Shown one piece after another: positions 349 through 28,221 of a stretch of 28,221 nucleotides of DNA. The position numbers and the translations under genes are program-made. The notes beneath the pieces are model-generated. The model worked only from the letters and a program-made list of their open reading frames with translations, was not told the origin of the DNA and ran no database searches. Origin of the DNA: Myxococcales bacterium (GTDB lineage: Bacteria; Myxococcota; Myxococcia; Myxococcales; Myxococcaceae). The DNA lies in assembly GCA_003153055.1 (NCBI GenBank), contig PMBV01000283.1, positions 1 to 28,221 on the forward strand, in the 5' to 3' direction. Each line of letters begins with the position of its first letter. The first letter of the stretch is position 1.

Positions 349-1827
349 ATGCTCTCCTGTCACCTGGCGCCTTGGCGCTTCACGGCTTCGGCGGTGATGG
401 CCGTGCTCACCATCTCTGGAGCGGCGCTCGCCCAACACCCGCGCCTGCCGCTGAGCCCCTGCCGGCTCAAGGGCGGACTCCAGGCGACCTGCGGCTCCTT
501 CGACGTTCCCGAAGACCGAGCGAAGCCCGACGGGCGGCACTTGAAGCTCAGGGTGGCCGTGGTCCCCGCGCTGGCCCGAAGCCCCCGCGCTGATCCGCTC
601 TTCATGCTCGCAGGCGGCCCGGGCCAAGCAGCAACCGAGGCGTTTCCCGAGCTCGTAACGATGGCTTTCGAGCGGGTGCATCGGTCCCGTGACATCGTGC
701 TGGTCGACCAACGCGGCACGGGCAGCTCGAACCCCCTCAAATGCCAGTTTGTCGACGCCGACGCTCCACTCGCCAAGCGCATCGCCGACCCGGGCTTCCC
801 CGCCGAGCGCCTCAAGGCGTGCCTCGAGGGCTACGACGCCGACCCTCGGCTCTACACGACCTCCATCGCCATGGAGGATCTCGACGAGGTCCGCCGGGCG
901 CTGGGCTATGGGCCCATCGACCTCTGGGGCGGGAGCTACGGCACCCGAGCCGCCCTCGTCTTCCTGCGCGAGCACGGCGACGCGGTTCGCTCGGTCATCC
1001 TCGACGGCGTCGCCCCACCCCCGCTCCGCCTGCCCATCAGCTTCGCCGCCGACGCGCAGCGGGCCCTCGACCGACTGTTCCTCGCCTGCGCCAACGAGGA
1101 GCCCTGCGCCAAGGCCTGGCCAGACCTCCCGGCCCGCTTCGAGCGCTTGCTGTCGCGCCTCGACACGTCGCCTCCGAGGGTGACCGTCGCCGACCCGCTG
1201 ACGGGAGCTCCGGTGCAGCTCACCATCGACCGCGACGTCATGACCTCGGTGTTGCGCGTGGTGCTCTACCAGCCGGGCATGGCGGTTCTGGTGCCGCTCG
1301 TCATCGCACGTGCCGAGGGAGGCGACTTCGGCCCCCTGGTAGCCATGGCCGCGGCCTTCGACGCCGGCACCCGCGACGCCATGGCCGTGGGAATGATGCT
1401 CTCGGTCGTCTGCACCGAGGACGTCCCGCGCATCGCCGATGGAGAGTGGGCCTCGGCGGCGAAGGGCACGTTCTTGGGCGAGGCCGTCTTTCGTCCATTC
1501 CGCGAGGGCTGCGCGGTGTGGCCCAAGGGCGAGGCTCCGGCGGGCTTCGGAGAGCCGGTGCGCAGCGACAAGCCGGTGTTGCTCCTCTCGGGCGAGGTAG
1601 ACCCGGTGACGCCTCCCGCATGGGCCGAGCAGGCAGCGAAGACCCTACCCAACAGCCGGCACTTCGTGGTGCCTGGAGTCGGTCACGGCGCCAGCAGCGT
1701 CGGGTGCGTCCCGCGGCTCATCTCCGAATTCCTGGACTCGGCGAACCCCGCCGCGCTCGACGGGACCTGCGTCACGACCCAGAAGCGCCCTCCGTTCTTC
1801 GTCAACTTCGCGGGGCCGACGCCATGA
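349..1827 (+). CDS. Secreted alpha/beta hydrolase, S33 peptidase / tripeptidyl aminopeptidase type
   Basis: A 492-aa protein expected to be exported and to cleave N-terminal residues from peptides, or a related ester or amide bond. Visible elements are an N-terminal signal peptide ending near GAALA/QHP, an oxyanion-type GGPG loop in LAGGPGQAA, and the strand-turn VLVDQRGTGSS typical of prolyl-aminopeptidase relatives. The nucleophile elbow GGSYG places Ser at about 196. Asp at about 418 (EVDPVTPP) and His at about 446 (GVGHG) lie in the TAP-like C-terminal region, so the triad is intact. The frame is open from 217, but ATG 349 is chosen because it puts the signal peptide at the N-terminus; ATG 397 is an alternative. 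No clear Shine-Dalgarno is seen. The stop overlaps the next ATG, so the hydrolase is probably co-translated with the ABC exporter. Family assignment is firm; the substrate is unknown. Confidence 0.88.
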   Translation: MLSCHLAPWRFTASAVMAVLTISGAALAQHPRLPLSPCRLKGGLQATCGSFDVPEDRAKPDGRHLKLRVAVVPALARSPRADPLFMLAGGPGQAATEAFPELVTMAFERVHRSRDIVLVDQRGTGSSNPLKCQFVDADAPLAKRIADPGFPAERLKACLEGYDADPRLYTTSIAMEDLDEVRRALGYGPIDLWGGSYGTRAALVFLREHGDAVRSVILDGVAPPPLRLPISFAADAQRALDRLFLACANEEPCAKAWPDLPARFERLLSRLDTSPPRVTVADPLTGAPVQLTIDRDVMTSVLRVVLYQPGMAVLVPLVIARAEGGDFGPLVAMAAAFDAGTRDAMAVGMMLSVVCTEDVPRIADGEWASAAKGTFLGEAVFRPFREGCAVWPKGEAPAGFGEPVRSDKPVLLLSGEVDPVTPPAWAEQAAKTLPNSRHFVVPGVGHGASSVGCVPRLISEFLDSANPAALDGTCVTTQKRPPFFVNFAGPTP

Positions 1828-2558
1828 TTGAGGTCCAAGGGCTGCACAAACGCTTCGGCTCGGTGGTAGCGATCGACGACGTCTCCTTCCGGGCCGACGA
1901 CGGGGTGGTGACCGGGCTCCTCGGGCCCAACGGCGCGGGGAAGACGACCTCGCTGCGAATCCTCAGCACGCTCATCATGCCGGAGCGCGGCCGGGCGATG
2001 GTCGACGGGCTCGACTGCGCCAAGGACTCCCTGGCGGTGCGCCGACGCTTGGGCGTGCTCCCCGATGCGAGGGGCCTCTACCCTCGGCTCACGGCGCGGG
2101 AGCACCTGACGTACTTCGGTCAGCTCCACGGGCTCACGGGCGAGGCCCTCGAGCGGCGCTCCGGAGAATTGATGCGGCTCCTGGAGCTCGACGGAGTGGC
2201 CGACCGACGCGTGGAGGGCTTCTCGAACGGCGAGCGCACCAAGGTGGCCCTGTGTCGCGCGCTGGTGCACGACCCGCCCAACGTCATCCTCGACGAGCCC
2301 ACCAACGGCCTCGACGTGATGAGCACCCGCGCGGTGAGGACGCTCATCAAGGAGCTCAAGGCCCAGGGGCGCTGCGTGGTCTTCTCGAGCCACGTGATGC
2401 AAGAGGTGGCAGCGCTCTGCGACCGCATCGTGGTGGTGGCCAAGGGGCGGGTGGTGGCCGACGGGACGGCGGACGAGCTCCGCCAGCGCACCGGCAAAGA
2501 CAACCTCGAGGAGGCGTTCGTGCAGGTGATTGGTTCAGACGCGGGGCTCATGTCATGA
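1824..2558 (+). CDS. ABC transporter ATP-binding protein, NatA-like
   Basis: A 244-aa cytoplasmic ATPase that would power the membrane partner encoded next. Walker A is GPNGAGKTT (about 34-42), Walker B is VILDEP (about 154-159), the D-loop is NGLD and the switch His is H190 in FSSHVM. The signature is FSNGER (about 133-138) rather than LSGGQ, and the Q-loop position reads LPDARGLY without Gln; such variants occur in the NatA/CcmA-like exporter group. Start ATG 1824 overlaps the hydrolase stop (ATGA), and the stop overlaps the permease start in the same way, which indicates tight stoichiometric coupling. NatA of Bacillus works with NatB in sodium efflux, but the group is broad and the cargo here may be a peptide or drug; the peptidase neighbour favours a peptide-like substrate (inference). 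Confidence 0.92.
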   Translation: MIEVQGLHKRFGSVVAIDDVSFRADDGVVTGLLGPNGAGKTTSLRILSTLIMPERGRAMVDGLDCAKDSLAVRRRLGVLPDARGLYPRLTAREHLTYFGQLHGLTGEALERRSGELMRLLELDGVADRRVEGFSNGERTKVALCRALVHDPPNVILDEPTNGLDVMSTRAVRTLIKELKAQGRCVVFSSHVMQEVAALCDRIVVVAKGRVVADGTADELRQRTGKDNLEEAFVQVIGSDAGLMS

Positions 2559-3754
2559 GCGCCCCGGGGCTGCTGAGCGGAGCGCGAACGGTCTTGAAGA
2601 AGGAGCTGGTCGATCACTTCCGTGACCGGCGTTCGTTGACCTCGGGCTTGCTGGTGCCGCTGTTGGGGCCGGTGCTGTTCACGCTGATGTTCACGGTGCT
2701 CGCGGACCTCTCCCGGAAGGACAAGCCCCTGGTGGTGCCGGTGAGGGGCCAGGTGCACGCTCCTTCGCTCATGGCTTTTCTGGAACGGAACGGGGCCAAG
2801 GTCGAGGCCGCTCCCGACGACGCCGAGCAGAAGGTGCGCGACGGCAAGCTCGACCTGGCGTTGATTGTCCCCGAGGGCTACGGGCGTGACTTCGTGGCCG
2901 GGCGCATGGCCAAGGTCGAGCTCGTGGTGGATTCGTCGAGCAACAAGGCCCGCGCCAACGTGCGGCGCATGGAGCGCCTGCTCGAGGGCTACGGGGCCCA
3001 GCTCGGGGCGCTGCGGCTCTTGGCGCGAGGGGTCAGCCCCACGCTGGCGATGCCGGTGCACGTGGAGGAAATCGACCTCGCCACGCCCGAGCGATCGGCC
3101 GCCGCGGTGCTGGGAATGGTCCCGATGTTCCTCCTGATGGCGGTGTTCATCGGCGGCATGTACCTGGCCATCGACTCGACGGCCGGTGAGCGCGAACGGG
3201 GCTCACTGGAGCCGTTGCTCATCAACCCAGTCACCCGGGCGCAGGTGGTGTTGGGGAAGTGGACCGCGGTGGTGCTGGTGAGCTGGGTGTCGGTGGTGGT
3301 ATCGATGGTTGGCTTCTCAGTGGCGCTGCGGCTCGTGCCCTTGCAAGACCTCGGGATCCGGGCCCAACTGGACGCCGGCCCGATGGTGGCGATGATCGCC
3401 GTGGCCCTGCCCTTGACGCTCTTCTCGGGTGGCCTCCAGATGCTCCTGGCGCTGTTCTCGCGCACCTTCAAGGAAGCCCAGACCTACCTGTCGCTGCTGA
3501 TGATCCTCCCGCTCATGCCATCGATGTTCATCAGCCTGTCGCCCATCGAGCCGAAGACGTGGATGATGGCGATCCCCGCGTTCTCGCAGACGGTGCTGCT
3601 CAACAATCTCCTGCGGGGCGATGCCATCACGCCCCTGTGGCACGTGGTGTCAGCGGTCACGACGCTGGCGGCCGCGGGAGTGGCGGTCGGGGCGGCGATT
3701 TGGCTCATCGGCCAAGAGAAGATCGTCTTCGGGCGCGGCGCCGGGACCAGCTGA
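2555..3754 (+). CDS. ABC-2 type permease, NatB-like
   Basis: A 399-aa inner-membrane permease partnering the upstream ATPase. Topology is that of ABC-2 exporters: one helix near residues 29-50 (LLVPLLGPVLFTLMF), a large extracytoplasmic domain to about 180, then helices near 185-208, 235-257, 270-300, 310-330 and a last one at about 360-388. The segment AGERERGSLEPLL after the second helix is the conserved cytoplasmic coupling motif of NatB-type permeases. The start overlaps the ATPase stop as ATGA. The last ~52 codons, including the final helix, are repeated at 7641-7799, so this 3' end may have been supplied by an inserted element. Function as an exporter subunit is secure; the transported compound is unknown. 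Confidence 0.9.
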   Translation: MSAPGLLSGARTVLKKELVDHFRDRRSLTSGLLVPLLGPVLFTLMFTVLADLSRKDKPLVVPVRGQVHAPSLMAFLERNGAKVEAAPDDAEQKVRDGKLDLALIVPEGYGRDFVAGRMAKVELVVDSSSNKARANVRRMERLLEGYGAQLGALRLLARGVSPTLAMPVHVEEIDLATPERSAAAVLGMVPMFLLMAVFIGGMYLAIDSTAGERERGSLEPLLINPVTRAQVVLGKWTAVVLVSWVSVVVSMVGFSVALRLVPLQDLGIRAQLDAGPMVAMIAVALPLTLFSGGLQMLLALFSRTFKEAQTYLSLLMILPLMPSMFISLSPIEPKTWMMAIPAFSQTVLLNNLLRGDAITPLWHVVSAVTTLAAAGVAVGAAIWLIGQEKIVFGRGAGTS

Positions 3755-3761
3755 GGCAGCC
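3596..3761 (+). repeat. Direct repeat, copy 1: 3' end of the permease gene
   Basis: This 166-bp segment matches 7641-7806 at a constant offset of 4045 bases with no indel and about 8 mismatches counted by hand (about 95% identity). It covers the last ~52 codons, the TGA and seven bases beyond. Homology stops abruptly on both sides. Five of the six mismatches inside the reading frame are synonymous; the exception is Ala to Gly in the last helix. Confidence 0.93.
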
Positions 3762-3852
3762 ATGGCTCAAGACAGCACAATGACTCTATCACCTCAGTGA
3801 AGGACATTGCAATCTTGCCTTCCAGGCACTCCGCCTGCGAGTGATCGTGTTG

Positions 3853-3880
3853 AAAACAACCACCCCCGACCTATTGGGGT
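3853..3880 (-). terminator. Possible intrinsic terminator of the island's minus-strand genes
   Basis: Read on the minus strand, ACCCC, an eight-base loop and GGGGT form a short stem that straddles the TAG of the small lipoprotein gene, followed by a T-rich run (GTTGTTTTC). The stem is only five base pairs, so this is a modest candidate. Confidence 0.4.
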
Positions 3881-4482
3881 ACGTCAGTCGACACGTGCTG
3901 TTCCAAAAACGACTGAATCGCGTGTGCGATCGGCATCACGTCGAACGTGACCGCTGCCGTAGACATGATTCTTACCCGCGCGAATACATTGAAATACACC
4001 CAGAGCACATCCCTTGCGGGGCCCACGCGCCCGGGGAAGAGCATGGCCGAATAGTCGCCCAGTTGTATCGATTGCGGAGTCGGCCCGAAGGGATTCGGCG
4101 ACCTCGACGCTGAACGCGCGACTCTCTTCATGCTTTCTATGGCCTGCGCCTGGCCTCCGCCCTGGTGAACTTCTATGGTCACACGAAGCGTCTGATTGCG
4201 GTCGACCTGCGACACGTAGTTCCATTCCGCGATGCCCCCCAGGGTAGGCAGGAAAGTTGCACTGTTCGAGAGCTTGAATCCTTCCAGAAATTGCTTCGTC
4301 ACCTGCGGCAACTGGGTCCAATCGGCGACGACTCGCTGTGAGGGAGGTCGCGGTGGAGTCTGTCCGAATCGCATCAGGTCTTCGAAATTCGCCACTGTTG
4401 GTCCGACCATCGACTCGCTCTCCTCTCGTGGCGCAGACTGGCCAACGACGCAGGCAATGACTATGGCCGAAAGCAGGATCAT
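3871..4482 (-). CDS. Small predicted lipoprotein of unknown function
   Basis: A 203-aa protein with no family I recognise. It starts with a short hydrophobic stretch leading to IVIAC, a usable lipobox with Cys at residue 11; a basic n-region is missing, so export by another signal-peptide type is possible. The mature part has a Pro/Arg-containing segment (about 43-50) and then a mixed alpha/beta region with a Tyr/Trp-containing stretch (VLWVYFNVFARV, about 160-171). It lies 87 bp downstream of the barrel-like gene on the same strand and is probably the last gene of the island's minus-strand operon. Base composition is lower in G+C than in the flanking genes. ATG 4482 is the first in-frame start. 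Confidence 0.6.
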   Translation of the reverse strand: MILLSAIVIACVVGQSAPREESESMVGPTVANFEDLMRFGQTPPRPPSQRVVADWTQLPQVTKQFLEGFKLSNSATFLPTLGGIAEWNYVSQVDRNQTLRVTIEVHQGGGQAQAIESMKRVARSASRSPNPFGPTPQSIQLGDYSAMLFPGRVGPARDVLWVYFNVFARVRIMSTAAVTFDVMPIAHAIQSFLEQHVSTDVPQ

Positions 4483-4569
4483 CGGACCCCGGTGAGTACC
4501 ACGTCCCCCGGGCCCAGCTACTCCAGAAGACCTTCGCCTGGCAGTGAAGGACCGTCATTGTCGTTCAGA

Positions 4570-6150
4570 TCAGAGCTTGTCGAACTCCTCCGAGAACAGG
4601 AGCCGCTCACCGAGGAGCGTCAAGGAGACACCCACCGTCATGGCGATCGAACTCCCAGATGCGGCATTCGCGTCGGGAGCGTTCGCGAAGGTGACGGACG
4701 GGGCGATGCGGAGCAGCCCCTTGTAAGCGTCCTTCTCTTTGCCCGCGAAGGCGAAATAGGTCGGCGCCGTCAACGTGAACTTGAAGCCCATGGGGTCGTT
4801 GGTCGGCACTTGAGCCTCGATACCGAGTGAAGCGCGATAGACGCTCTCGTGCGTATCCAGCACGCCGGCGTACGCGGCGGCGGAGAGGGACGAAACCCGC
4901 GTCGGCGACCCGAGCACCCCCTCGCTGCACGACTCGCCGGGCGCGACGTGCGCTGGGCCGCCGAGGTTCACCCCAGCGGTCGGTGTGCACCAGCGCACCA
5001 TGGCGGATGCGGCTTCCCAACCGAGCGCCCACCCAGCCCGACCCTCGATGCTCAATGTGTGAGTTGTCCCAGCCAGCAGACGAGTCGCGCTCACACCGAG
5101 ATTGGCCAAGGGCCTCGAAGCATTCCTCTTCAACTCCATCGTGCTGGTCGCGCCGCTCGGAACAAGATAGCTCATGTAGGTCTGGCCTGCGACCACGCCG
5201 AAATTGAGGAGGGTGGACGGGTAGGCGGACAACGCTAGCTTCCTCGTCTGCTTATTCAGTTCGTCTTTCCCGGTGGGGCAGAGTCTTGTTTCCAGGTCTG
5301 GCTTCGAGTTGTCTGGCAACTCGAAACGTGGTTCGCTCTGGCAGAACTTCCATTGGGCTGGCGTCGGCAGGACGTCGCTCGAGCACGGGGCGAGGCACCC
5401 CTCGAGCAGCGTGCTCAACTGGCCCTCGGCGGCTCGGATCTTCTCGTTGATAACCTCCTCACCCAACGAGGCGTCGGACACAAATGGCTCGAGACGGTCG
5501 AAGATCTTCCTGGCCTCCGTCTCATCACAGTAGGCGGCGGCCCGTCTCCATTTCTTCACTCCTGCCAGGGTCGGCGTCCAGACATGCTCGACGCGGTAAG
5601 ACAGCCGCTGGGGCGCAATGACCTGCCCCTCGAATTCGAAGGTGGCTGGCAGGTCCTCCCCCAGCACCAGACTATGGACCCACGACTTCCGCTCCTTTCC
5701 CTCGAGCGTGGCCTTCGCCTTGCAGAAGGCTTCGTCGTTCTCCGCGCCCACCCTGCACCTAGCGATGCAGATGTTGGTGCCAGCCACGAGCGCCGCGTCT
5801 CTGGCTTCGTTGTTGACGATGGGGTTCACGTCGAGGTTGAAGCTGGCATACGTCGCGCTGAGACCCAGTTTCCAGTCGTTCCCAAGAGAGAGCTCGCCAC
5901 TCTTGAGCCCGAACAGCCTGGCGAAGCCGTCTTTCGTCGCCACTCTCGCGTTGCCACGAAGGACCCACTCACCGCCAGCAGAAGCCGGGACGCGAACGCC
6001 GATGGTCGCGCGCGCCTCGGCCGCTCCGTCGGTCTTCCCTTCCAACTGGAAGTTCGGCTGCGTGAGCGACACATCAACGGCCCATGATGGCTCGGCGGCC
6101 AAGGCCAGCAGAGCGAGGGCAATTGGTCGCTGGGCTCGCGAGCGGGGCAT
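4570..6150 (-). CDS. Secreted, probable outer-membrane beta-barrel protein, unknown function
   Basis: A 526-aa protein with a clear signal peptide (n-region MPRSRAQR, hydrophobic core ALALLALAA, cleavage likely after PSWA). The mature protein is rich in alternating polar/hydrophobic stretches typical of beta strands: WKLGLSATYASFNLDV early, TLSIEGRAGWALGWEAA in the middle, FKFTLTAPTYFAFA and SIAMTVGVSLTLLGE near the end. About a dozen Cys residues lie in a central insert (about 125-310), suggesting disulfides in a periplasmic or surface domain. It does not end in the usual Phe/Tyr of classic porins (it ends FDKL), so the barrel call is an inference. The start lies 8 bp after the stop of the 126-aa gene, indicating one operon. 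No known family recognised. Confidence 0.7.
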   Translation of the reverse strand: MPRSRAQRPIALALLALAAEPSWAVDVSLTQPNFQLEGKTDGAAEARATIGVRVPASAGGEWVLRGNARVATKDGFARLFGLKSGELSLGNDWKLGLSATYASFNLDVNPIVNNEARDAALVAGTNICIARCRVGAENDEAFCKAKATLEGKERKSWVHSLVLGEDLPATFEFEGQVIAPQRLSYRVEHVWTPTLAGVKKWRRAAAYCDETEARKIFDRLEPFVSDASLGEEVINEKIRAAEGQLSTLLEGCLAPCSSDVLPTPAQWKFCQSEPRFELPDNSKPDLETRLCPTGKDELNKQTRKLALSAYPSTLLNFGVVAGQTYMSYLVPSGATSTMELKRNASRPLANLGVSATRLLAGTTHTLSIEGRAGWALGWEAASAMVRWCTPTAGVNLGGPAHVAPGESCSEGVLGSPTRVSSLSAAAYAGVLDTHESVYRASLGIEAQVPTNDPMGFKFTLTAPTYFAFAGKEKDAYKGLLRIAPSVTFANAPDANAASGSSIAMTVGVSLTLLGERLLFSEEFDKL

Positions 6151-6158
6151 GTGGCGTT

Positions 6159-6539
6159 CTAGAAGACCAGGGTGAAGAAGTCAGGCGCCGTGCCGGCGGT
6201 CTTGCTCACGACTTGACCCGCCTCCTTGGCTCGCAGCGTATACCCTGCGTTCCCCGCCGTCTGCCCTCTGAATTCCACGGGGAGCTTGGGGACCGACAGT
6301 GTCGCCGGGGCCGACGGTGAAACGAGGATCGGGCTCTTGAAAGGCGTCCCCCCCAGGTAGAGCGCGCCCTCCGTGACAACGTGCCCCGGCGCGTCGACCA
6401 TCTCAAGGGTGACCTCACGAGAACCCGCAGCTTCATGAACGGCGCGCATGGTGACCATGGCAGTGAAGTGCGGTTCACCAGGAGTCGGCCGTGTGGACGC
6501 CCTTGAGAACCGAGGTTTGACTGCCTTCTTCCTTGTCAT
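6159..6539 (-). CDS. Small protein with Ig-like beta character, unknown function
   Basis: A 126-aa protein beginning MTRKKAVKPRF. The frame is open far upstream, but ATG 6539 is chosen because a purine-rich site (GGGGGA) sits about five bases ahead of it and because the upstream extension would run antisense into the divergent gene. Residues 26-126 look like one all-beta domain with regularly spaced hydrophobic strands (EVTLEMVD, ALYLGG, ATLSVPKLPVEF, YTLRAKEAG) and a hydrophobic C-terminus (DFFTLVF). No signal peptide or membrane helix is seen. It is the first gene of the minus-strand trio, 8 bp ahead of the barrel-like gene, so the two products may interact; this is inference only. Confidence 0.6.
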   Translation of the reverse strand: MTRKKAVKPRFSRASTRPTPGEPHFTAMVTMRAVHEAAGSREVTLEMVDAPGHVVTEGALYLGGTPFKSPILVSPSAPATLSVPKLPVEFRGQTAGNAGYTLRAKEAGQVVSKTAGTAPDFFTLVF

Positions 6540-6620
6540 CTTTCCCCCTTGTGTTGAAGACAGTGGAATCCTGCCTGAGCGTTCGGTGGTAAACAACCAG
6601 GGCCTCCTTCTGGAAAGGAA

Positions 6621-7610
6621 ATGGCTTTGCGATCGTGCCCAGGTACCAGCGTCTCCGAGCCGTCCAGCCCCTGTGGGTTTGACCTCGGTCCAACCATCGA
6701 CGCGGCGTGCAAGCGTCGAAAAGTCGTCTTCGCCATACAGAGCCTGACCAGGGCGCAGGGCACCGGGCCTGACGAGGTCATCGTGCAGTGCCCCCAGTGC
6801 GAGACTTGGGTCGGGGGCACTTGTGGCTCGAACACGCCACTCAGAGTCGTGCACAAGGCCGAGTCCACTGAGCTCGAGGCGCTTCAGCAGTTGATTCGGC
6901 CCAAGGAGGTCCTCTCGGAGCTCAATGGGTACGCGCGCCTGATTTTCGGGGGAAGCGCCACCGTCGCGGCCCTGTTCAGCCTTGGTTCGTCGACGGGGTT
7001 GGGGCCTACCACGGGTGGCGGCACGGCTGTTGCCGCGGGGTCGATAGCGGCGCTGGGCATCGCGCTGGGGCTGGCCATCTGGTCGCTTGCGCCACAAGCA
7101 TCGAAGAAGGAGATCTCTGGTTCGAATCTCGAGCAATTGCACGAGGCGGTGCTCCAGCTGATCGACTCGAAGTACTTACGCATAAAGGCTGCTGCGGTCG
7201 TGTTCGTCGTGTCGCTCGTGACCATGGCGCTGGTGCCGCTGGCGAACCGGAGCACGCTGACGGCAGCGCCGGCACGAGGCGGTCCCCGCCTGTCCGCGAG
7301 CTACACGCTCTCGTCGGCGAACGCTTTGAACGTTCACCTCGTCGGCGAGGGCCTCGACGCGGGCCAGAGCGTCGAAGTGCGGCTTGAGAAGGCTGAGGGG
7401 GACGCCGGGCCCTGCGCGGGGGTGAACTGGGCCATCGCGCGAGGCGACGCAGATGCCGATGGCGGACTCCGCCTCGAGCTCTCGGCCTCGTGTCTGCCCG
7501 GAGCGCTGTTCCGGATCTCAGCGTGCAACAGCGAGAATCCGCCAAAGTGGGTGCCCCTGGTGATTCGAACGAGAGAAGTGGACTGTCCCGCTGGTCCGGC
7601 CCAAAAATAG
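6621..7610 (+). CDS. Three-helix membrane protein with N-terminal Cys motif, unknown function
   Basis: A 329-aa protein not matched to any family I know. The N-terminal ~100 residues are soluble and contain CPQC at 57-60 with another Cys at 68, resembling half a zinc ribbon; further Cys residues lie at 18 and 30. Hydrophobic helices follow near 105-124, 135-157 and 188-207, with a charged helical linker (160-187) between the second and third. The C-terminal ~110 residues form a beta-rich domain with several Cys residues (near GPCAG, ASCLPG, SACN, VDCPAG), fitting an extracytoplasmic position. ATG 6621 has AAAGGA just upstream. It is transcribed divergently from the 126-aa gene across 81 bp, so a shared control region is likely. 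It is the only plus-strand gene in the island; its stop lies 30 bp before the second natB repeat. Confidence 0.62.
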   Translation: MALRSCPGTSVSEPSSPCGFDLGPTIDAACKRRKVVFAIQSLTRAQGTGPDEVIVQCPQCETWVGGTCGSNTPLRVVHKAESTELEALQQLIRPKEVLSELNGYARLIFGGSATVAALFSLGSSTGLGPTTGGGTAVAAGSIAALGIALGLAIWSLAPQASKKEISGSNLEQLHEAVLQLIDSKYLRIKAAAVVFVVSLVTMALVPLANRSTLTAAPARGGPRLSASYTLSSANALNVHLVGEGLDAGQSVEVRLEKAEGDAGPCAGVNWAIARGDADADGGLRLELSASCLPGALFRISACNSENPPKWVPLVIRTREVDCPAGPAQK

Positions 7611-7640
7611 CGCGCGGTACGGCGTCGGAACCCAGGGGCC

Positions 7641-7799
7641 CTCCTCAACAACCTCCTGCGGGGCGATGCCATCACGCCCCTGTGGCACGTGGTGTCAGGG
7701 GTCACGACGCTGGCTGCCGCGGGAGTGGCGGTCGGGGCGGCGATCTGGCTCATCGGCCAAGAGAAGATCGTCTTTGGCCGCGGCGCCGGGACCAGCTGA
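7641..7799 (+). pseudogene. Fragment of the NatB-like permease gene (3' end), direct repeat copy 2
   Basis: Reading from 7641 gives LLNNLLRGDAITPLWHVV and onward to GRGAGTS and TGA (7797-7799). This is the last ~52 residues of the permease encoded at 2555-3754 with a single amino-acid change. DNA homology continues seven bases past the stop, to 7806. There is no start codon or 5' part, and an in-frame TAG of the preceding gene lies 30 bp upstream, so it cannot make a transporter. The mostly synonymous differences mean the two tails diverged while both were under coding selection, for example as alleles of natB in different strains. A strong hairpin follows four bases after the repeat, which is where natB's own terminator would be expected. 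Confidence 0.88.
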
Positions 7800-7810
7800 G
7801 GCCGCCGGTT

Positions 7811-7840
7811 CGCTCGACGGCCAATTGGAACCGTCGAGCG
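7811..7840. terminator. Strong hairpin, likely bidirectional terminator
   Basis: A perfect 10-bp inverted repeat, CGCTCGACGG (7811-7820) and CCGTCGAGCG (7831-7840), encloses a loop containing the palindrome CCAATTGG. It sits between the natB fragment (plus strand) and the end of the propeller gene (minus strand). There is no T-tract, so termination would depend on the hairpin itself or on Rho. Nothing equivalent follows the intact natB gene at 3754. Confidence 0.6.
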
Positions 7841-7878
7841 GCCGTGCAGCGCCTTCGATTCAGCGCAGCGTCATCGCA

Positions 7879-9354
7879 TCACCGGTGAGGGCTGTGCGGG
7901 GGCTTCCAGTACGCACCCCAGATGTCCGAACCTTCGGTATCGACACGGAAGTCGGTCCAGGCGATCCAATAGCCGCCGTCCACGTCTGCGCTGACGGCAG
8001 GGTCAGACTTCGCGCTCGCGACCGGAGAGAGCGTCGTGTCTCCAGGCCAGTAGTCGGGCAGCCCGAGCGAGACCGTCGCCACCGCGGCCGTGGCATCGAA
8101 CGGGAAGTTCTGGCTCGAAGCATAGAACACGGCCATGCCACCCGGACTCGGTCGTATGGACGCCAGGCGCGCACCGACCGGGTCCATGGGGTCGAACAGC
8201 GCCATGCCTTGCGGCCCGAACTGCCCAACAGGGTCGAGACCGTTGGGGTCATAGGCCTGCACGAAGATGCCCGAGCCGTTCTGATTCTTGTCCATCTCCC
8301 GCCACGCCACGACGAGGTGGCCGTGAATCAGAGAGAGGGCGCTGATGACGTGGGACATCTCCGGGTTGTTCGACACGGAGGCGCCGCGCGGATCCCACGC
8401 CACGGTGCCATCGGCCCTGACGTGCTGCACCAGTCCCTCGAAGGAGAGGTCCTTCTTGACGAGGCTCCAGGCGGCGAAAGCACCGCCCGCCCCGTCGGAG
8501 ACCAACTCGGGTTTGAGCACGAACGGCAGCGGGTCGAGGCAGTTGAGCTGCACGGTGACCGGCCAGACGGCGCGGCCCCAGCGGTCGAAACGCTGAACCA
8601 TGGCGTTGCCCGATGCCGGCCCTCCATTCTCCAGCCATGCAACGATGACATCAGAGGTCCCTGCGGGGATGACCTTCGGGAACCCGGCTGAGTTTCCATC
8701 GGAGCCGTGGATCCGCTGGGGCACAGCCCACTGCACAGTGCCCGACGGGCTGACTCGCTGGAGCGCAACCCCCCTGTCGGTAGCCGACTCGTAGGACCAC
8801 GCGACGACCACCGACCCGTCGCCGCACAGCACGGCGTTCGGCTCATACCCCCACATGCCGGGATCAGTGAGGACGACGCCTTTGGCGCCCCACCGCGACC
8901 GGCCTCGCTCGTCAAAGCGCTGGAGCCGCATCGTGTAGTCCGTCGTATTTCCGTAGGCCAGAATCGCGTCGCCGTTCTTCGCTGTCAACAACGTATAGTC
9001 TGTCACCCAGCTGTCTGAATCGACGACGCTGGCGAGAATACCTTCTTTGCCGAGGTGCTTGTGCCCTTCGGTATCAATGCGTTGCAGGCGCAAGGAATAC
9101 GTAGTTTGGTTGGGTGCCTGATGGTACCAGCTCAACCAAGCCGTGCCGTCATTCCGCGCGGCCAGATGAGCCAGAATCTGTTCTCCGCCGCCGCCCTGCA
9201 ACAACTGCTCACCCCGGGTCGCGGGCCGGTTCGCGGGAGCGCCCACAGTGAAGACATCGTCAGTCTCCGACGGTACTGCCGCCATGCTCGTCCCTGCGAG
9301 AAGGACCAGCGAGGAGGCCAGCAGCGGAATGAAGCGGGAATACACATGTCGCAT
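7879..9354 (-). CDS. Secreted beta-propeller-like repeat protein
   Basis: A 491-aa exported protein of unknown function. ATG 9354 is preferred over the open frame from 9420 because AAGGAA lies just upstream and the signal peptide then begins at residue 1, with cleavage near TSMAA/VPS. The mature region has six repeats of the form Q-[RHA]-aromatic/aliphatic-x3-G-x3-W, with the Gln at about 91, 145, 199, 254, 310 and 366, a period of 54-56 residues. Between them lie AWLSW/VAWS/AAWSL-type strands. This regular spacing fits a six- or seven-bladed propeller and resembles secreted repeat proteins common in Myxococcota and Bacteroidota. No catalytic motif stands out, so a binding role is likelier. 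It follows the fibro-slime gene on the same strand with a 297-bp gap. Confidence 0.75.
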   Translation of the reverse strand: MRHVYSRFIPLLASSLVLLAGTSMAAVPSETDDVFTVGAPANRPATRGEQLLQGGGGEQILAHLAARNDGTAWLSWYHQAPNQTTYSLRLQRIDTEGHKHLGKEGILASVVDSDSWVTDYTLLTAKNGDAILAYGNTTDYTMRLQRFDERGRSRWGAKGVVLTDPGMWGYEPNAVLCGDGSVVVAWSYESATDRGVALQRVSPSGTVQWAVPQRIHGSDGNSAGFPKVIPAGTSDVIVAWLENGGPASGNAMVQRFDRWGRAVWPVTVQLNCLDPLPFVLKPELVSDGAGGAFAAWSLVKKDLSFEGLVQHVRADGTVAWDPRGASVSNNPEMSHVISALSLIHGHLVVAWREMDKNQNGSGIFVQAYDPNGLDPVGQFGPQGMALFDPMDPVGARLASIRPSPGGMAVFYASSQNFPFDATAAVATVSLGLPDYWPGDTTLSPVASAKSDPAVSADVDGGYWIAWTDFRVDTEGSDIWGAYWKPPHSPHR

Positions 9355-9651
9355 GAAGGTTCCTTGAAGTGATTCGCGAGTTGCAATTGCGCGACTTCGG
9401 GTGAAGTCGGGCACGTGCAAGCAATTCGCGAGCCGGTGTTATCGAAGGAAGTGCTTCAGCGCCGCGCCGGGTGGAGATCGACCCGAACCTGGGGGCCTCT
9501 TGTCTGGCGCACGGTTTCTCGAGGCGCCTCACGGTTTTCTGATGTCTGCATGACGAGGCCCCGCCTGCCTTGAGCGCTCAGGCGAGACCAAAATTCTCAG
9601 GCGATGAGGATTCTCGGAGAGTGGGATTCGCGCCCATGAGGCGCTCGAACT
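9355..9651 (-). promoter_or_regulatory. Intergenic leader of the propeller gene with repeats and hairpin
   Basis: This 297-bp gene-free stretch contains a 6-bp perfect hairpin, GACTTC-gggt-GAAGTC (9393-9408), flanked by two copies of ATTCGCGAG (9372-9380 and 9424-9432), and a GCAATTGC palindrome at 9383-9390. Further out are the perfect palindromes GAGGCGCCTC (9521-9530) and TGAGCGCTCA (9571-9580). The latter is extended by CGCCTG/CAGGCG into a weak hairpin that could end transcription of the fibro-slime gene. It is lower in G+C than the genes around it. Which element is a promoter, operator or terminator cannot be decided from sequence. Confidence 0.4.
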
Positions 9652-14651: not shown

Positions 14652-15563
14652 ATGGGCTGGGTATCTCTGACTGTTGACGTGCCGACGCCGAAGAGCGAGC
14701 TGGCGCAGAGCGTGATGTACGACTTCGGCGTGGCGGGGCTCGAGGTGCGCGACTGGGGCCAGAACGTGATGCCGCAGGTGAGGGCTCCCAAGCAGGGGGA
14801 GGCCATCATCATCGGCTACTTCGAGGCCCGTGCTCAGGCGGTCAAGGCGAGGAAGGCGCTCGAGAAGCGCATCACCGAGGTCCGCGCGTCACTCGAGGCG
14901 GTGGTGGAGCGCGACTGGAGCCTGGAGTGGAAGAAGCAGATCAAATCCGTCACCGTCGGGCGCCTGTGGGTTGGGCCGCCGTGGGAGCGGAAGTCGGCAC
15001 CAGCGGACAAGGTTCGCCTCTTCATCGAGCCGAAGATGGCCTTCGGAACCGGCGACCACCCGACCACCAAGCTGTGCCTGGCTGCCGTCGATGAGGTGAT
15101 GGGCAAGCACCCGGGCGCGTCGGTGCTCGACGTGGGCACGGGCACGGGCGTGCTCGCCATGGCAGCCAAGAAGCTCGGCGCCTCGCGCACCGTCGGCACC
15201 GACAATGACCCGGTCGCCATCGAGCTGGCCATCGAGTGCGCCGAGGAGAACGAGCTCGAGGGCATCGAGCTGTCGACCAAATCTCTCAAGGCAGTCACCG
15301 GCCGCTTCGACCTGGTCGTGGCGAACATCTTGGCCAATACACTCATCGAGCTGGCGCCGCTGCTGGCTGCGAAGACCGGCGGAAGGCTGGTGCTGGCCGG
15401 GGTCCTCGTGCCCCAAGCCAAAGACGTGACGGCGGCCTTCGTCAAGGCGGGGCTCACCCACGTCGGCGACACGGTGGAGGGAGAGTGGATCCGCCTCGAC
15501 TTCGACGCTCCGACGAAGAAGATGGCCAGCGCGGCCCGGCCAGCCAAACGCCGCGCCACCTAG
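14652..15563 (+). CDS. prmA: Ribosomal protein L11 methyltransferase PrmA
   Basis: A 303-aa cytoplasmic SAM-dependent enzyme that methylates ribosomal protein L11. The PrmA hallmark FGTGDHPTT is at about 131-139, followed by the SAM-binding motif I LDVGTGTG (about 159-166), an acidic motif II end (GTDNDP) and the catalytic-pocket motif VVANILANTL. The N-terminal substrate-binding part begins MGWVSLTVDVP. ATG 14652 is chosen on family length. GTG 14628 and GTG 14634 are in frame, and the GGAGGTGAT at 14630-14638 lies 13 bases before the ATG, a long spacing. A perfect TTGACA at 14606-14611 has no good -10 partner. The C-terminus ends in a short basic tail. It heads a probable operon with rsmE 24 bp downstream. 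Confidence 0.95.
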   Translation: MGWVSLTVDVPTPKSELAQSVMYDFGVAGLEVRDWGQNVMPQVRAPKQGEAIIIGYFEARAQAVKARKALEKRITEVRASLEAVVERDWSLEWKKQIKSVTVGRLWVGPPWERKSAPADKVRLFIEPKMAFGTGDHPTTKLCLAAVDEVMGKHPGASVLDVGTGTGVLAMAAKKLGASRTVGTDNDPVAIELAIECAEENELEGIELSTKSLKAVTGRFDLVVANILANTLIELAPLLAAKTGGRLVLAGVLVPQAKDVTAAFVKAGLTHVGDTVEGEWIRLDFDAPTKKMASAARPAKRRAT

Positions 15564-15587
15564 CCAGCACGAGAGGACCTCGCAGAC

Positions 15588-16313
15588 ATGAAACGGCTCT
15601 TCCTCGCCGGTGCCCACGCCGGCCCATGCGTCGTCCCAGAGGCCGCGGCTCACCACCTGGTCGACGTGTTGCGAATGAGCGAAGGAGACGCCCTCGAGGT
15701 CTTCGACGGCGCGGGAACGACGTTCCCCGCCCGCATCGAGCAACTCGACGGAGAGACGGTCATGCTGGCCCTGGGAGAAGGTCGAGCGGCCCCAGCACTT
15801 CGGCGCGTCACCATCGTTCAGGGCCTGCCCAAAGGTGACAAGCTTGACTGGGTGCTCCAGAAGGGCACGGAGCTCGGCGCCAGCGCCTTCTCCATCGCCA
15901 TCTGCGAGCGCACCGTCGTCAAGGTCGAGGGCAAGGAGGCCCACAAGGTCGCCCGTTGGCAGCGCATCGTCGAGGAGGCTGCCCGTCAATGCGGCCGGGC
16001 CGACGTCCCCCCGGTTCAGCCCCCGCTCGCCCTCGAGGCAGCGGTGCGAGCGTTGGCCCCGGGCACCCGCGTCTACGTCCTCGACGAGTCCGAGCGCGCC
16101 ACCACGCTCTCCGCGGCGTTTCTCTTGGCCCAACCCACCGACGAGGTCGCCGTCGTCATCGGCCCAGAGGGCGGCCTGTCTCGGACGGAGGTCGACGGCC
16201 TCCTGACGCTCCATGCGGTCCCCGTCACCCTGGGTCGACTGGTACTGCGAACCGAGACCGCCGCCCTCGCGGCCCTCGCCGTCCTCAGGCATCTCGACGG
16301 TGCCCTGGGGTAG
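15588..16313 (+). CDS. rsmE: 16S rRNA (uracil-1498-N3)-methyltransferase RsmE
   Basis: A 241-aa SPOUT-class enzyme that methylates U1498 of 16S rRNA. The N-terminal PUA-like domain (about 1-70) includes HHLVDVLRMSEGD. The SPOUT domain shows KGDKLDWVLQKGTELG, WQRIVEEAARQCGR, the knot motif VIGPEGGLS (about 190-198) and LGRLVLRTETAALAAL, all diagnostic. A GAGGA site precedes ATG 15588. The length fits the family. Pairing prmA with rsmE is a common bacterial arrangement. Confidence 0.95.
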   Translation: MKRLFLAGAHAGPCVVPEAAAHHLVDVLRMSEGDALEVFDGAGTTFPARIEQLDGETVMLALGEGRAAPALRRVTIVQGLPKGDKLDWVLQKGTELGASAFSIAICERTVVKVEGKEAHKVARWQRIVEEAARQCGRADVPPVQPPLALEAAVRALAPGTRVYVLDESERATTLSAAFLLAQPTDEVAVVIGPEGGLSRTEVDGLLTLHAVPVTLGRLVLRTETAALAALAVLRHLDGALG

Positions 16314-16364
16314 GAAAAGGTGGGTTTTCTTGATCCACGAGGCTGAACGTCGTCTCATGCCGCG

Positions 16365-18443: not shown

Positions 18444-18473
18444 CGCTCCCAAGAATCTGCCCGTCGGAAGGAA

Positions 18474-21380: not shown

Positions 21381-23018
21381 ATGCGCCTCCCTCCCACACT
21401 GGTGCTGTGCCTTGCTTTCGCAGCTTGCTCTGGTCTTGACCCAACGACCTCCGATGGTGGGGCAGGTGGAGGGAGGACCTCGGCGGGCGGAGGAACGTCG
21501 TCGGCAGGCGGAGGCGCAGCCGCGGGCGGAGGCGCGGCCGCGGGCGGAGGCTCAGCCGCGGGCGGGGGCTCAGCCGCGGGCGGAGGCTCAGCCACGGGCG
21601 GAGGCTCAGCCACGGGCGGAGGCTCAGCCGCGGGCGGAGGCTCAGCCGCGGGCGGAGGCTCGGCGGCAGGCGGCGGGCGTGGTGCCGCCCTCGAAGTCAA
21701 CCCGGCCAAGCTCGAGCTACCCGAGGTCGGCGGGGCAGCGCAGGGAGTCAGCCTCGGCGGAGGACAACCACCCTACCGCGTCTCCGGATGCGAGGGGATC
21801 CTCCGGACCGAGGTGTCGGGGTCGATGCTCTTGGTCGCCCCGCTGAGCCCGGGCTCCTGTGCACTCTCGGTGAGCGACTCGACGGCGCCCGCGCCAGGGC
21901 AGGGCACGCTCGAGGTGAAGGTGACCAGCACCACGGCCTCTCTGTCGCCCACTCCTCCCATGGGATGGAACAGCTGGAACCGGTTTGGCTGCGACGTCAG
22001 TGAGAGCCTCATCAAAGGGGTGGCAGACGCCATGGCGTCCAATGGGATGAAGGAAGCGGGCTATCGCTACGTCAACATCGACGACTGCTGGCAGGTGAGC
22101 CGCGAGGCGAACGGGACCATCAAGGCCGATGCCACTCGCTTCCCGAACGGGATTTCGGGCTTGGCGACCTCCATCCACGGTCTGGGCCTGAAGTTGGGCG
22201 TCTATTCTGACCGCGGCACGAAGACCTGCGCCGGGCGGCCAGGCTCACAGGGCTACGAGACCCAAGACGCCACCGCCTACGCCGCGTGGGGAGTGGACTA
22301 CCTCAAGTATGACAACTGCAACGCGACCTTGGACCAGCACACTCAATACCAGGCGATGAAGGACGCGCTCACCGCGAGTGGAAGGAGCATCGTGTTCAGC
22401 ATCTGCGCTTGGGGCTACGCCCAGTGGATGCCCAGCGCGGGAGAGCTCTGGCGCACCACGGGGGACATCAACGACTCCTGGGGCTCGGTCTCGGGGATCA
22501 TCGATACCAACGCGGGTTTGGCCAGCCACGCCAGCCCCGGCCACTGGAACGACCCCGACATGCTCGAGGTCGGGAATGGCCACATGACAGACACCGAGTA
22601 CCGCGCGCACTTCAGTCTGTGGGCCATCATGGCGGCGCCGCTCATCGCCGGAAACGACGTCCGGTCGATGACCGCCGAGACGAAGGCGATTCTGACCGCG
22701 AAGGAGGTCATCCAAGTCAACCAGGACCTCCTCGGCCGACAGGGAACGCGGGTGCGCGACGATGGCGACCGTGAGGTGTGGAGCAAGGTCCAGAGCGGAG
22801 TGGGACGGCGGGTGGTGGCCCTCTTCAATCGAGGCGGTGCCGCCGCGAGCATCACCGTGAGCTGGGCGGAGATCGGCCTCGATTCGGGGGCGGCCGCGGT
22901 GCGGGATCTCTGGGCGCGAAGCGACCTCGGTCCCACCGCTACCAAGTACTCCGCGAACGTACCGTCGCACGGAGTCGTGCTGCTCGAGGTCGTCGGGAAG
23001 GAGAAGAGCTCCCCCTGA
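21381..23018 (+). CDS. GH27 alpha-galactosidase-family lipoprotein
   Basis: A 545-aa predicted surface glycosidase removing alpha-linked galactose; some family members act on beta-L-arabinopyranose. The signal ends AFAAC (lipid Cys 16), a Gly-rich repeat linker runs to about residue 101, and a small Ig-like domain (about 102-185) precedes the GH27 barrel. Barrel marks are PPMGWNSWNRFGC (from about 190), the nucleophile in DYLKYDNC (Asp 311) and the acid/base in TTGDINDSW (Asp 362), plus GHWNDPDMLEVGNG. The C-terminal antiparallel beta domain ends VVLLEVVGKEKSSP. The active site is intact. No clear Shine-Dalgarno precedes ATG 21381. The last ~68 bp recur in decayed form at 23495-23563, beyond the convergent two-CW gene. 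Confidence 0.93.
   Translation: MRLPPTLVLCLAFAACSGLDPTTSDGGAGGGRTSAGGGTSSAGGGAAAGGGAAAGGGSAAGGGSAAGGGSATGGGSATGGGSAAGGGSAAGGGSAAGGGRGAALEVNPAKLELPEVGGAAQGVSLGGGQPPYRVSGCEGILRTEVSGSMLLVAPLSPGSCALSVSDSTAPAPGQGTLEVKVTSTTASLSPTPPMGWNSWNRFGCDVSESLIKGVADAMASNGMKEAGYRYVNIDDCWQVSREANGTIKADATRFPNGISGLATSIHGLGLKLGVYSDRGTKTCAGRPGSQGYETQDATAYAAWGVDYLKYDNCNATLDQHTQYQAMKDALTASGRSIVFSICAWGYAQWMPSAGELWRTTGDINDSWGSVSGIIDTNAGLASHASPGHWNDPDMLEVGNGHMTDTEYRAHFSLWAIMAAPLIAGNDVRSMTAETKAILTAKEVIQVNQDLLGRQGTRVRDDGDREVWSKVQSGVGRRVVALFNRGGAAASITVSWAEIGLDSGAAAVRDLWARSDLGPTATKYSANVPSHGVVLLEVVGKEKSSP
21504..21683 (+). repeat. 18-bp tandem repeat, ten units, encoding the AGGGSA linker
   Basis: Ten in-frame units of the type GCGGGCGGAGGCTCAGCC encode AGGGSA, with AGGGAA, TGGGSA and AGGGRG variants at particular positions. 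Several adjacent units are identical or differ by one base, so the array is recently expanded and probably length-variable between strains. Gain or loss of units would keep the frame and only alter the tether of the GH27 enzyme. Confidence 0.92.
22951..23018 (+). repeat. Diverged direct repeat, copy 1: 3' end of the GH27 gene
   Basis: This segment aligns with 23495-23563 over about 68 bases at roughly 80% identity, counted by hand, with one 1-base indel near the stop. The strongest block is GTGCTGCTCGAGGTCGTC, identical in both copies. Confidence 0.75.
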
Positions 23019-23029
23019 GGCGTGCGTGG

Positions 23030-23326
23030 TCATTTGAGTTTCTGGAAGATGGTCGATGGGCCCACCAGCCGTGACCCTTCCTCGTGCACCACGGCCTTGT
23101 AATGGTTGCAGACCATGCAGTTGGGTACCTTCCCCGCGAACGACGCCTGCACCTTGCCCCCGCAGAGCGTGCCCACGAGCGCCCAGCAGGCGCGCCCTCC
23201 GTTGACGCCACCGTTGATCCCGTTGACCCGGGACTCCGTCGCGGCGGGACACACTCCCAGCTCCGACACCTTCGGGCCCCCTACCTGGCGACCGCAGCCC
23301 TTCGCTTCCCAGCAGTTCTTGCTCAC
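23030..23326 (-). CDS. Two-CW domain protein
   Basis: A 98-aa protein of the two-CW family, named for paired Cys-Trp motifs. These are seen at 5-6 (KNCWE) and 47-48 (RACWA), with conserved Cys at 11, 26, 55, 70 and 73 (CMVC). Seven Cys residues in a protein this small suggest metal or cluster binding. The family is found alone or fused to sensor domains in many proteobacteria, but its biochemical role is not established. It starts at GTG 23326 with a strong GGGGGTGA site upstream. It converges on the GH27 gene with an 11-bp gap and is bracketed by the two copies of the GH27 3' end, so it may be a later arrival at this site. Confidence 0.8.
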   Translation of the reverse strand: MSKNCWEAKGCGRQVGGPKVSELGVCPAATESRVNGINGGVNGGRACWALVGTLCGGKVQASFAGKVPNCMVCNHYKAVVHEEGSRLVGPSTIFQKLK

Positions 23327-23748
23327 GGGTCACCCCCGGGACTCGCGCCTGCAAGAATCCCACCTCCCGGAGGGCCGCGAGATTCAGGGGAGCTCCCTGG
23401 GTCCCTTTCACCTCCCAGAGGCGTCACGGCCCGGGTGAGAAACCGCCTCTACGGCAGCGAAGTGACCGGCCCAGTGGTGTACGTGCCCCTCCAGCGGAGA
23501 GCGTACCGTCTCGCGGACTCGTGCTGCTCGAGGTCGTCCGCAAGGAGAGGGGCTCAGCCCTGACGCCCGCACCTGGTTCGGGGACACATCAAAGACAAGG
23601 CAGTGCCGTGGTGTTCTCGGTCGACCGGTGAATACCAAGACATTCAGGACCTCGAGCTTCTCGCACACTGATGGGGCGCATCGGTGGCTCGCGCTTCCGC
23701 CGAAATCTGGATATGCCCTGCCGCATGCGCGTTCGACCTAGCGGAGCA
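23327..23748. other. Gene-free stretch holding the GH27 tail remnant
   Basis: These 422 bp separate the two-CW start from the heme-motif lipoprotein. Apart from the decayed GH27 3' end at 23495-23563, I see no gene. The part after 23564 is lower in G+C and presumably contains the promoter of the downstream lipoprotein, but no convincing -35/-10 pair was found. Confidence 0.5.
23495..23563 (+). pseudogene. Remnant of a GH27 gene 3' end, diverged repeat copy 2
   Basis: In one frame this reads ESVPSRGLVLLEVVRKERGS, matching the end of the upstream GH27 enzyme (ANVPSHGVVLLEVVGKEKSS). A one-base insertion shifts the original stop out of frame, and the reading continues to a TGA at 23629-23631. 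There is no start or catalytic region, so it is a relic. It lies beyond the two-CW gene, about 545 bp from the intact copy. Confidence 0.7.
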
Positions 23749-28050: not shown

Positions 28051-28221
28051 ATGGTACGCACCTCGCTCATCTGGGTGAGCATTCTATCCTTCTCGGCCTG
28101 CGAAGGGGCGAGCCCGGAGAGTGACACGGGAGGTTCTGGCGGAAGGGGGGGCGGCGGCGGTGGCTCTGCCATTGGCGGTGGCTCTGGCGTCGGCGGCGGC
28201 TCTGGCGTCGGCGGCGGCTCT
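28051..28221 (+). CDS. Gly-rich lipoprotein, 5' part only (cut by window end)
   Basis: The first 57 codons of an open frame. ATG 28051 has GGAGG seven bases upstream. The product begins MVRTSLIWVSILSFSAC, a lipoprotein signal with lipid Cys 17, and continues into a Gly/Ser linker of GGGS units (GGGGGGSAIGGGSGVGGGS). The functional domain lies beyond the window. By analogy with the other Gly-linked lipoproteins here, it may carry a glycan-active or binding domain, but nothing in the visible part shows that. Confidence 0.75.
   Translation, partial: MVRTSLIWVSILSFSACEGASPESDTGGSGGRGGGGGGSAIGGGSGVGGGSGVGGGS

What the first reader, a model, noticed from the sequence alone, without database searches (positions are those of the whole stretch)
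3596..7806. A 3.9-kb gene block is bracketed by two copies of the natB 3' end
Bases 3596-3761 and 7641-7806 match without indels at about 95% identity. The match covers the last ~52 codons plus seven bases after the stop of the NatB-like permease. Between them lie four unfamiliar genes in lower-GC DNA. Five of six coding differences are synonymous, so the tails diverged under selection in separate genes rather than by recent local copying. That is what insertion at a gene's 3' end, with the incomer supplying a replacement tail, would leave. No recombinase is visible.
Basis: partly seen in the sequence, partly recalled or inferred. Interest (0 to 1): 0.75.

Follow-up and report, generated by a model that had tools for sequence, protein, structure and literature searches.

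The report
Gene block between duplicated gene tails
In an uncultured, probably myxobacterial genome, four unfamiliar genes sit between two copies of the end of a transporter gene, most likely a scar left when incoming DNA hooked onto that gene's end by ordinary recombination.

Summary
Window 3596-3761 and 7641-7806 match at 158 of 166 bases without indels: the last 52 codons of a natB-like permease plus 7 bases, bracketing 3.88 kb with four genes and no recognisable recombinase. Homology stops sharply at the copies. None of 105 other natB locus records has a second tail. Best explanation: a fragment carrying natB's end plus the block entered by homologous recombination through that end (re-circularised fragment and single crossover, or homology-facilitated illegitimate recombination); E. 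coli experiments give such 109-950-bp gene-end duplications. Context: a second gene in this window (an alpha-galactosidase) also has a short copy of its 3' end downstream. Gene 3'-end repeats occur for 2 of 16 window genes against 1 of 1042 control genes, and 5'-end repeats for none. Distant relatives of the block's c2 gene lie at variable sites where other genes' tails (lipoprotein, ferritin-like, terminase) are duplicated or orphaned. The anchors are unrelated, which argues against one att site.

The parts
1824..2558 (+). natA-like ABC ATPase
   Evidence: Pfam ABC_tran 6.9e-28; found in 102 of 103 natB loci
2555..3754 (+). natB-like ABC-2 permease, intact
   Evidence: Pfam ABC2_membrane_3 2.8e-30; homologues named sodium transport system permease by JGI
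3596..3761 (+). left copy of the natB 3' end (firm start 3599)
3871..4482 (-). block gene c1, 203 aa, N-terminus signal-like by eye
   Evidence: no family; distant relatives in 8 of 195 Myxococcota genomes at E<=0.01
4570..6150 (-). block gene c2, 526 aa, N-terminus signal-like by eye, six conserved Cys columns in its family alignment
   Evidence: no family above threshold; relatives in 9 of 195 Myxococcota genomes at E<=0.01; alignment
6159..6563 (-). block gene c3, 134 aa from TTG (126 aa from ATG at 6539); predicted beta-sandwich
   Evidence: single-sequence AlphaFold2 model, mean pLDDT 72.9, 8 strands; small gene directly before c2 relatives in 5 loci
6621..7610 (+). block gene c4, 329 aa; CxxC motif and two hydrophobic stretches by eye
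   Evidence: no family above threshold; weak relatives in 6 of 195 genomes at E<=0.01
7611..7640 (.). 30 bases from the c4 stop to the joint 7640/7641 with the natB tail
   Evidence: no natB homology before the joint
7641..7806 (+). right copy of the natB 3' end; open frame begins at 7611, no start codon in that frame before natB residues
7797..7855 (+). hairpin after the right copy
   Evidence: dG -36.1 kcal/mol, 0 of 200 shuffles as low
7879..9420 (-). next gene downstream of the insertion
   Evidence: Pfam match weak and below cut-off; no relative found in 103 natB loci
21381..23018 (+). alpha-galactosidase gene, second gene of the window with a 3'-end copy
   Evidence: Melibiase_2 2.8e-79, Melibiase_C 8.5e-19; 3' end 22955-23021
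23499..23566 (+). 68-bp copy (83.8%) of the alpha-galactosidase 3' end, ending 3 bases past the stop-equivalent; an ORF 23030-23326 (-) lies between
   Evidence: E 8.8e-15; in frame 19 aa, 68% identical, E 1.7e-5

Best explanation
The block entered by homologous recombination that used natB's 3' end as its only hook. A DNA fragment from the same or a sister species, in which natB was followed by the c1-c4 block, carried a piece of natB's end. Its two ends were joined into a circle (the joint would be 7640/7641) and the circle went in by one crossover within the natB end; or, a near variant, one end recombined homologously and the other joined illegitimately inside the resident tail. Either way natB stays intact with the block behind it, and a truncated second tail stays in front of the resident hairpin. 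Shown: the repeat, its sharp edges, its end 7 bases past the stop, no recognisable recombinase, and gene-tail copies elsewhere in this window and at sites of c2 relatives. Inferred: donor, circle, direction and time. The block's own function is not known; two of its genes look exported by eye.
For: Repeat 158/166 with no homology beyond it; right tail, not left, followed by the hairpin. The two tails (51 of 52 aa identical) are closer to each other than to the nearest relative (41 of 52), so both come from one species or close sisters, as homologous entry needs. Second gene-end copy in the same window: alpha-galactosidase, 68 bp, ends 3 bases past the stop. Gene 3'-end repeats reaching the stop: 2 of 16 window genes, against 0 of 143 genes at Myxococcota-side natB loci and 1 of 899 at other natB loci; 5'-end repeats 0 in all five sets, 1264 genes. 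c2 relatives sit at comparable places: between a gene and a 606-bp copy of its 3' end (L146), against a 338-bp orphan ferritin-like tail (L145), and beside a terminase whose tail is copied at the same site in G108 and at a related stretch in G102. Experiment: of 60 E. coli clones from a fragment with homology at one end, 56 gave a PCR product for a duplication, 14 sequenced ones 109-950 bp, explained by a re-circularised molecule and single crossover; 4 of 60 were homology-facilitated illegitimate recombination (PMC3240628, section 12 read).
Against: No donor strain, empty site or read evidence was available. No close relative held. L146 has a transposase abutting its right copy and its anchor gene lies elsewhere in G060 and G099, so IS action may explain that case. 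L143 shows a 4.04-kb difference from its sisters with no tail copy, and L142 and L147 have no tail copy of their own, so c2 genes also move without this scar. natB's downstream is not a general hot spot: 27 of 31 sister pairs share it. The one amino-acid change is in the right copy, as decay after a local duplication would also give. DNA uptake by this host is assumed; a paper search listed 6 of 106 papers, none with Myxococcus in its title.
Confidence: 0.58

Rival explanations
1. Local duplication and deletion: natB (or the natAB end) was duplicated in tandem, the block arose or came in between, and all but the tail of the second copy was lost.
For: Would also give a tail fragment; the only amino-acid change is in the right copy; tandem full genes with diverged 5' parts occur at the ferritin-like sites L189 and L192 and a 4.6-kb tandem duplication at L150.
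Against: With the right copy neutral, at most one replacement in six has P 0.025-0.066. No trace of natB before 7641. No tandem natB tail in 105 other records. Does not by itself explain why repeats end at stop codons and never reach start codons.
Confidence: 0.17
2. A site-specific integrative element, or a decayed one without its recombinase (CIME), whose att site is the natB 3' end and which brought a replacement tail.
For: Direct repeats at a gene's 3' end with the host gene kept whole; a phage-integrase-family gene stands near one c2 relative (L147:10002-10679).
Against: No recombinase family in the block. Anchors of comparable loci are unrelated genes with repeats of 68-606 bp. The block's genes are not linked elsewhere: none of 16 loci fetched around c1, c2 or c4 relatives had two of the families. 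c2 and c4 not found in IMG/VR or plasmids.
Confidence: 0.13
3. Metagenome misassembly joined two natB haplotypes.
For: No whole genome is held for the window; its NatB is on contigs of at most 31,319 bases, so it is probably an assembled metagenome.
Against: The copies differ at 8 sites and share at most 46 identical bases in a row. The same NatB is on five contigs, and c2 with Cys for Arg at residue 3 is on an ENA contig of 9,846 bases; neither fact shows the junction itself. A second, independent tail copy exists in the window.
Confidence: 0.08

Closest known systems
Single-crossover insertion of a re-circularised fragment, and homology-facilitated illegitimate recombination (PMC3240628)
   Same: Partial duplication of a gene end (there 109-950 bp, here 166 bp) around inserted DNA, without a recombinase.
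   Different: There a laboratory plasmid at lacZ; here a natural block at an ABC permease gene, with no donor known.
Rhs orphan fragments and T6SS effector-immunity arrays (PMC3967940, PMC5361080; passages read)
   Same: A displaced 3' gene fragment lies behind incoming genes; main and orphan rhs share 95% over 522 bp; the Vibrio authors propose homology-facilitated illegitimate recombination.
   Different: There the displaced end is a variable effector with an immunity gene; here it is a conserved end of a transporter gene with no effector or immunity family found.
CIME / integrative element at a gene's 3' end (PMC5704250 seen in a search listing only; definition recalled)
   Same: Direct repeats of a gene end around cargo without a recombinase.
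   Different: No related element with a recombinase and no common att sequence found.
Small variable segments of bacterial genomes (PMC2884548, passages read)
   Same: Replaced or inserted segments attributed largely to illegitimate recombination, homology-assisted in part.
   Different: Most repeats there are under 30 bp; here 166 bp covering a gene end.

Membership tests
Single-crossover / homology-facilitated recombination product | Partial duplication of the homologous gene end flanking the insert | tested here: met
   166 bp, 158 identical
Single-crossover / homology-facilitated recombination product | No homology between the two outer or the two inner sides of the copies | tested here: met
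Single-crossover / homology-facilitated recombination product | Existing donor haplotype with natB followed by the block, and recipient with natB followed by the hairpin | not testable with these tools
   No natB closer than 56-57% in genomes; metagenome contigs capped at 0 scans
Site-specific integrative element or CIME | Flanking direct repeats at the end of a host gene | tested here: met
Site-specific integrative element or CIME | Recombinase in the element (a CIME lacks one but shares att with an element that has it) | tested here: not met
   No recombinase family in c1-c4; a partner element elsewhere was not testable
Composite transposon / IS-flanked segment | IS at the ends of the block | tested here: not met
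   No transposase family in the block; no inverted repeat >=40 nt in the window. L146 does have a DDE_Tnp_1 gene
Rhs/T6SS-type orphan module array | Displaced fragment is a variable effector end with an immunity gene | tested here: not met
   Displaced tail is 51/52 identical to natB's own; no effector or immunity family in Pfam or NCBIfam and no defence family in PADLOC

The most novel reading that the evidence does not exclude
In this lineage, and in Myxococcota more widely, the 3' ends of ordinary genes (permease, alpha-galactosidase, lipoprotein, ferritin-like, phage terminase) serve as general landing pads. Cassettes of patchy, exported-looking cargo such as c3-c2 pass between strains as tail-plus-cassette units without any recombinase. 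Orphan tails ending at stop codons are the scars, and each scar is a new hook for the next exchange.
Probability: 0.27. Interest if true: 0.7.

Novelty: new variant of a known kind. Interest (0 to 1): 0.46.

Why it matters
If right, orphan gene tails that end at stop codons are a readable scar of recombinase-free gene gain, which would let one count such events across large myxobacterial genomes. It carries a displacement model known from toxin loci over to ordinary genes, and it points to an uncharacterised, patchy gene pair (c3-c2) that recurs at variable sites, one of them prophage-like.

Tried and rejected
Protein-database searches with c4 and c2 each returned one protein, 100% identical over the part aligned: a shorter reading of c4 and a c2 allele; distant c2 relatives turned up only by genome search. 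c2 and c4 not found in IMG/VR or plasmids; a natB-tail pattern not in IMG/VR. c1 and c3 were not searched there. No tRNA and no Rfam match at gathering scores in the window. Foldseek of the c3 model: no match at E<=0.001, best 0.016 (MmpL5-S5-AcpM entry), not used. c4 was suspected to match L146:7734-8870 by its CxxC motif; BLASTP gave E 1.6. A tblastn extension of the tail match 30 aa upstream was no better than shuffles. L146 was first taken as a clean second example; the transposase and the moved anchor gene make it ambiguous. natB's downstream as a hot spot: rejected. The label Mx alpha for the prophage-like sites is recalled, not tested. A direct repeat in L195 (133 bp, 86%) is not at a gene end. 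The c1 and c4 loci L150-L156 were left out of the counts; L150 and L153 hold tandem duplications. A fold of c2 with its relatives was not tried, since loci from the genome search are outside what the fold tool says it accepts.
Full report
What is there. Window 3596-3761 and 7641-7806 form a direct repeat of 166 bases, 158 identical, no indels. The left copy is the end of an intact natB-like permease gene (2555-3754) in a hydrolase-natA-natB group; relatives of natB, natA and the hydrolase were found in 103, 102 and 98 of 103 fetched loci. The right copy starts inside the gene, has no start codon in its frame before it, and is followed by a strong hairpin that the left copy lacks. Both copies run 7 bases past the stop. 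No homology continues outside them.

How unusual it is. The same test on other natB loci found no second tail in 105 records (some genomes occur twice, through); eight of them gave only 16-33-base matches at E 1e-3 to 2e-5. Repeats of >=150 bp, >=90%, >=1 kb apart were absent from 95 natB loci, 1.45 Mb.

A second case in the same window. The alpha-galactosidase gene 21381-23018 has a 68-bp, 83.8% copy of its 3' end at 23499-23566, E 8.8e-15, ending 3 bases past the stop-equivalent; 477 bases and an ORF 23030-23326 (-) lie between. Only the last 19 aa match, and a remnant of a tandem relative is possible. Of 18 genes listed by hand, natB and this one have 3'-end copies in the window; among 5' ends only one 41-base match within a repetitive stretch was seen. 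With one automatic gene caller for all sets, 3'-end repeats (>=50 bp, >=80%, reaching the stop) were seen for 2 of 16 window genes, 0 of 143 genes at 21 natB loci (L001, L104-L123), 1 of 899 at 79 other natB loci, 2 of 71 at 8 c2 loci (both in L146, one pair) and 8 entries among 135 genes at 19 sister loci (L189, L192, L197, L205; pairs count twice, and L189 and L192 are tandem full genes); 5'-end repeats reaching the start were 0 of 1264 genes. The window was chosen for its natB repeat, so only the alpha-galactosidase case is independent evidence for this genome.

Origin of the window. No whole genome is held for it. The nearest natB in GTDB contigs is 56%; in 147 genomes of that genome's class, 57%. 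In the protein database the window's NatB is on five contigs of at most 31,319 bases, with relatives at 86% and 78% known here as proteins only. The three listed homologues that bear an organism name (53-58%) are from Myxococcales/Myxococcota. The two tails are 51 of 52 aa identical; the 86% relative's tail is 41 of 52. So both tails stem from one species or close sisters.

Did the tails diverge apart? With 181 synonymous and 431 nonsynonymous weighted opportunities, at most one replacement in six has P 0.07-0.87 if both copies were constrained (omega 0.5-0.05) and 0.025-0.066 if the right copy was neutral; the likelihood ratio is 2.8-7.7. The one replacement is in the right copy: of 19 relatives, 14 have Ala as the left, 2 Gly as the right, 2 Val, 1 Thr.

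The cargo. c1 (3871-4482 -), c2 (4570-6150 -), c3 (6159-6563 -) and c4 (6621-7610 +) match no family above threshold. A c2 protein with Cys for Arg at residue 3 lies on a 9,846-base ENA contig. Searches of 195 Myxococcota genomes gave c2 relatives in 9, c1 in 8 and c4 in 6 at E<=0.01; c3 was not searched. On rescoring 16 fetched loci, 7 held a c2 relative at E<=1e-12 and 2 a weak one, and none held two of the families. A small gene stands directly before the c2 relative in L142, L143, L145, L146 and L147, as c3 before c2, but none of them matches c3 significantly. So c3-c2 is a pair by position only, and the block looks like a composite of patchy myxobacterial genes.

Comparable sites. L146 (G062): genes like c3-c2, a 378-aa gene and a DDE_Tnp_1 transposase lie between a lipoprotein-like gene and a 606-bp, 99.3% copy of its 3' end that runs 11 bases past the stop. 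The transposase abuts the copy, and in G060 and G099 only the anchor gene matches the fetched stretches, so IS action is possible. L145 (G070): the pair abuts a 338-bp orphan tail of a ferritin-like gene (label weak, Pfam E 0.036-0.045); sister G058 is collinear up to that tail and has two full genes there. L147 (G105): the pair lies beside a terminase (two frames, pieces searched apart) and a phage-integrase-family gene. At that site G108, G118 and G121 hold other genes, and G108 has extra terminase tails of 137 and 42 aa; a related stretch of G102 has one of 43 aa. L143 (G083): 4.04 kb against about 0.2 kb in G082 and G084, no tail copy. L142 (G049): right flank matched in 8 of 8 genomes searched, left not alongside it in the two read. 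With limits of 100 bp, 80% and 500 bp apart, gene-end repeats occur in 4 of 26 c2 and sister loci without the window (L146, L189, L197, L205) against 1 of 95 natB control loci; Fisher p 0.007, although related loci are not independent.

Mechanism. The common feature is a copy of a gene's 3' end that stops within 11 bases of the stop codon, where two haplotypes with different downstream genes would cease to be alike. In E. coli, of 60 clones from a fragment homologous at one end, 56 gave the PCR product of a gene-end duplication, 109-950 bp in the 14 sequenced, explained by re-circularisation and single crossover; 4 were homology-facilitated illegitimate recombination (PMC3240628, section 12 read; passages). 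Salmonella rhs main and orphan share 95% over 522 bp (PMC3967940, passages); the Vibrio array paper proposes homology-facilitated illegitimate recombination for displaced genes (PMC5361080, passages). The window fits this with an ordinary permease as anchor. Hence tail-anchored homologous entry 0.58, local duplication and deletion 0.17, site-specific element 0.13, misassembly 0.08.

Limits. No donor, empty site or reads; metagenome contigs could not be scanned. DNA uptake by this host is assumed: a search for Myxococcus xanthus with natural transformation and competence listed 6 of 106 papers, none with Myxococcus in its title. A search for gene-end partial duplication by cassettes returned three papers, none on this by title. 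I do not claim the pattern is unpublished.

Noticed in passing
window 21381-23566: Second gene-end repeat: the alpha-galactosidase 3' end recurs as a 68-bp copy about 0.5 kb downstream, with a small ORF on the other strand between them.
   Followed up: partly
L147:8553-10008, L197:4495-4933 and 5846-5970, L205:10341-10468: Prophage-like sites where tails of the terminase gene (137, 42 and 43 aa) stand apart from the main gene, with different genes in between from genome to genome.
   Followed up: partly
L145:4708-6913 against L188-L196: One chromosomal site in sister species holds one or two ferritin-like genes, other genes, or the c3-c2 pair with only a ferritin-like tail: a small replacement hot spot.
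   Followed up: partly
L150:2678-7230 and 15022-19577; L153:5125-6043 and 7694-8598: Relatives of c1 lie inside tandem duplications (4.6 kb at 93%; 0.9 kb at 85%).
   Followed up: no
window 21471-21694 and 28138-28217: 18-base GC-rich repeats, Gly/Ala-rich when read in the alpha-galactosidase gene, just after its start; similar units near the window's end.
   Followed up: no
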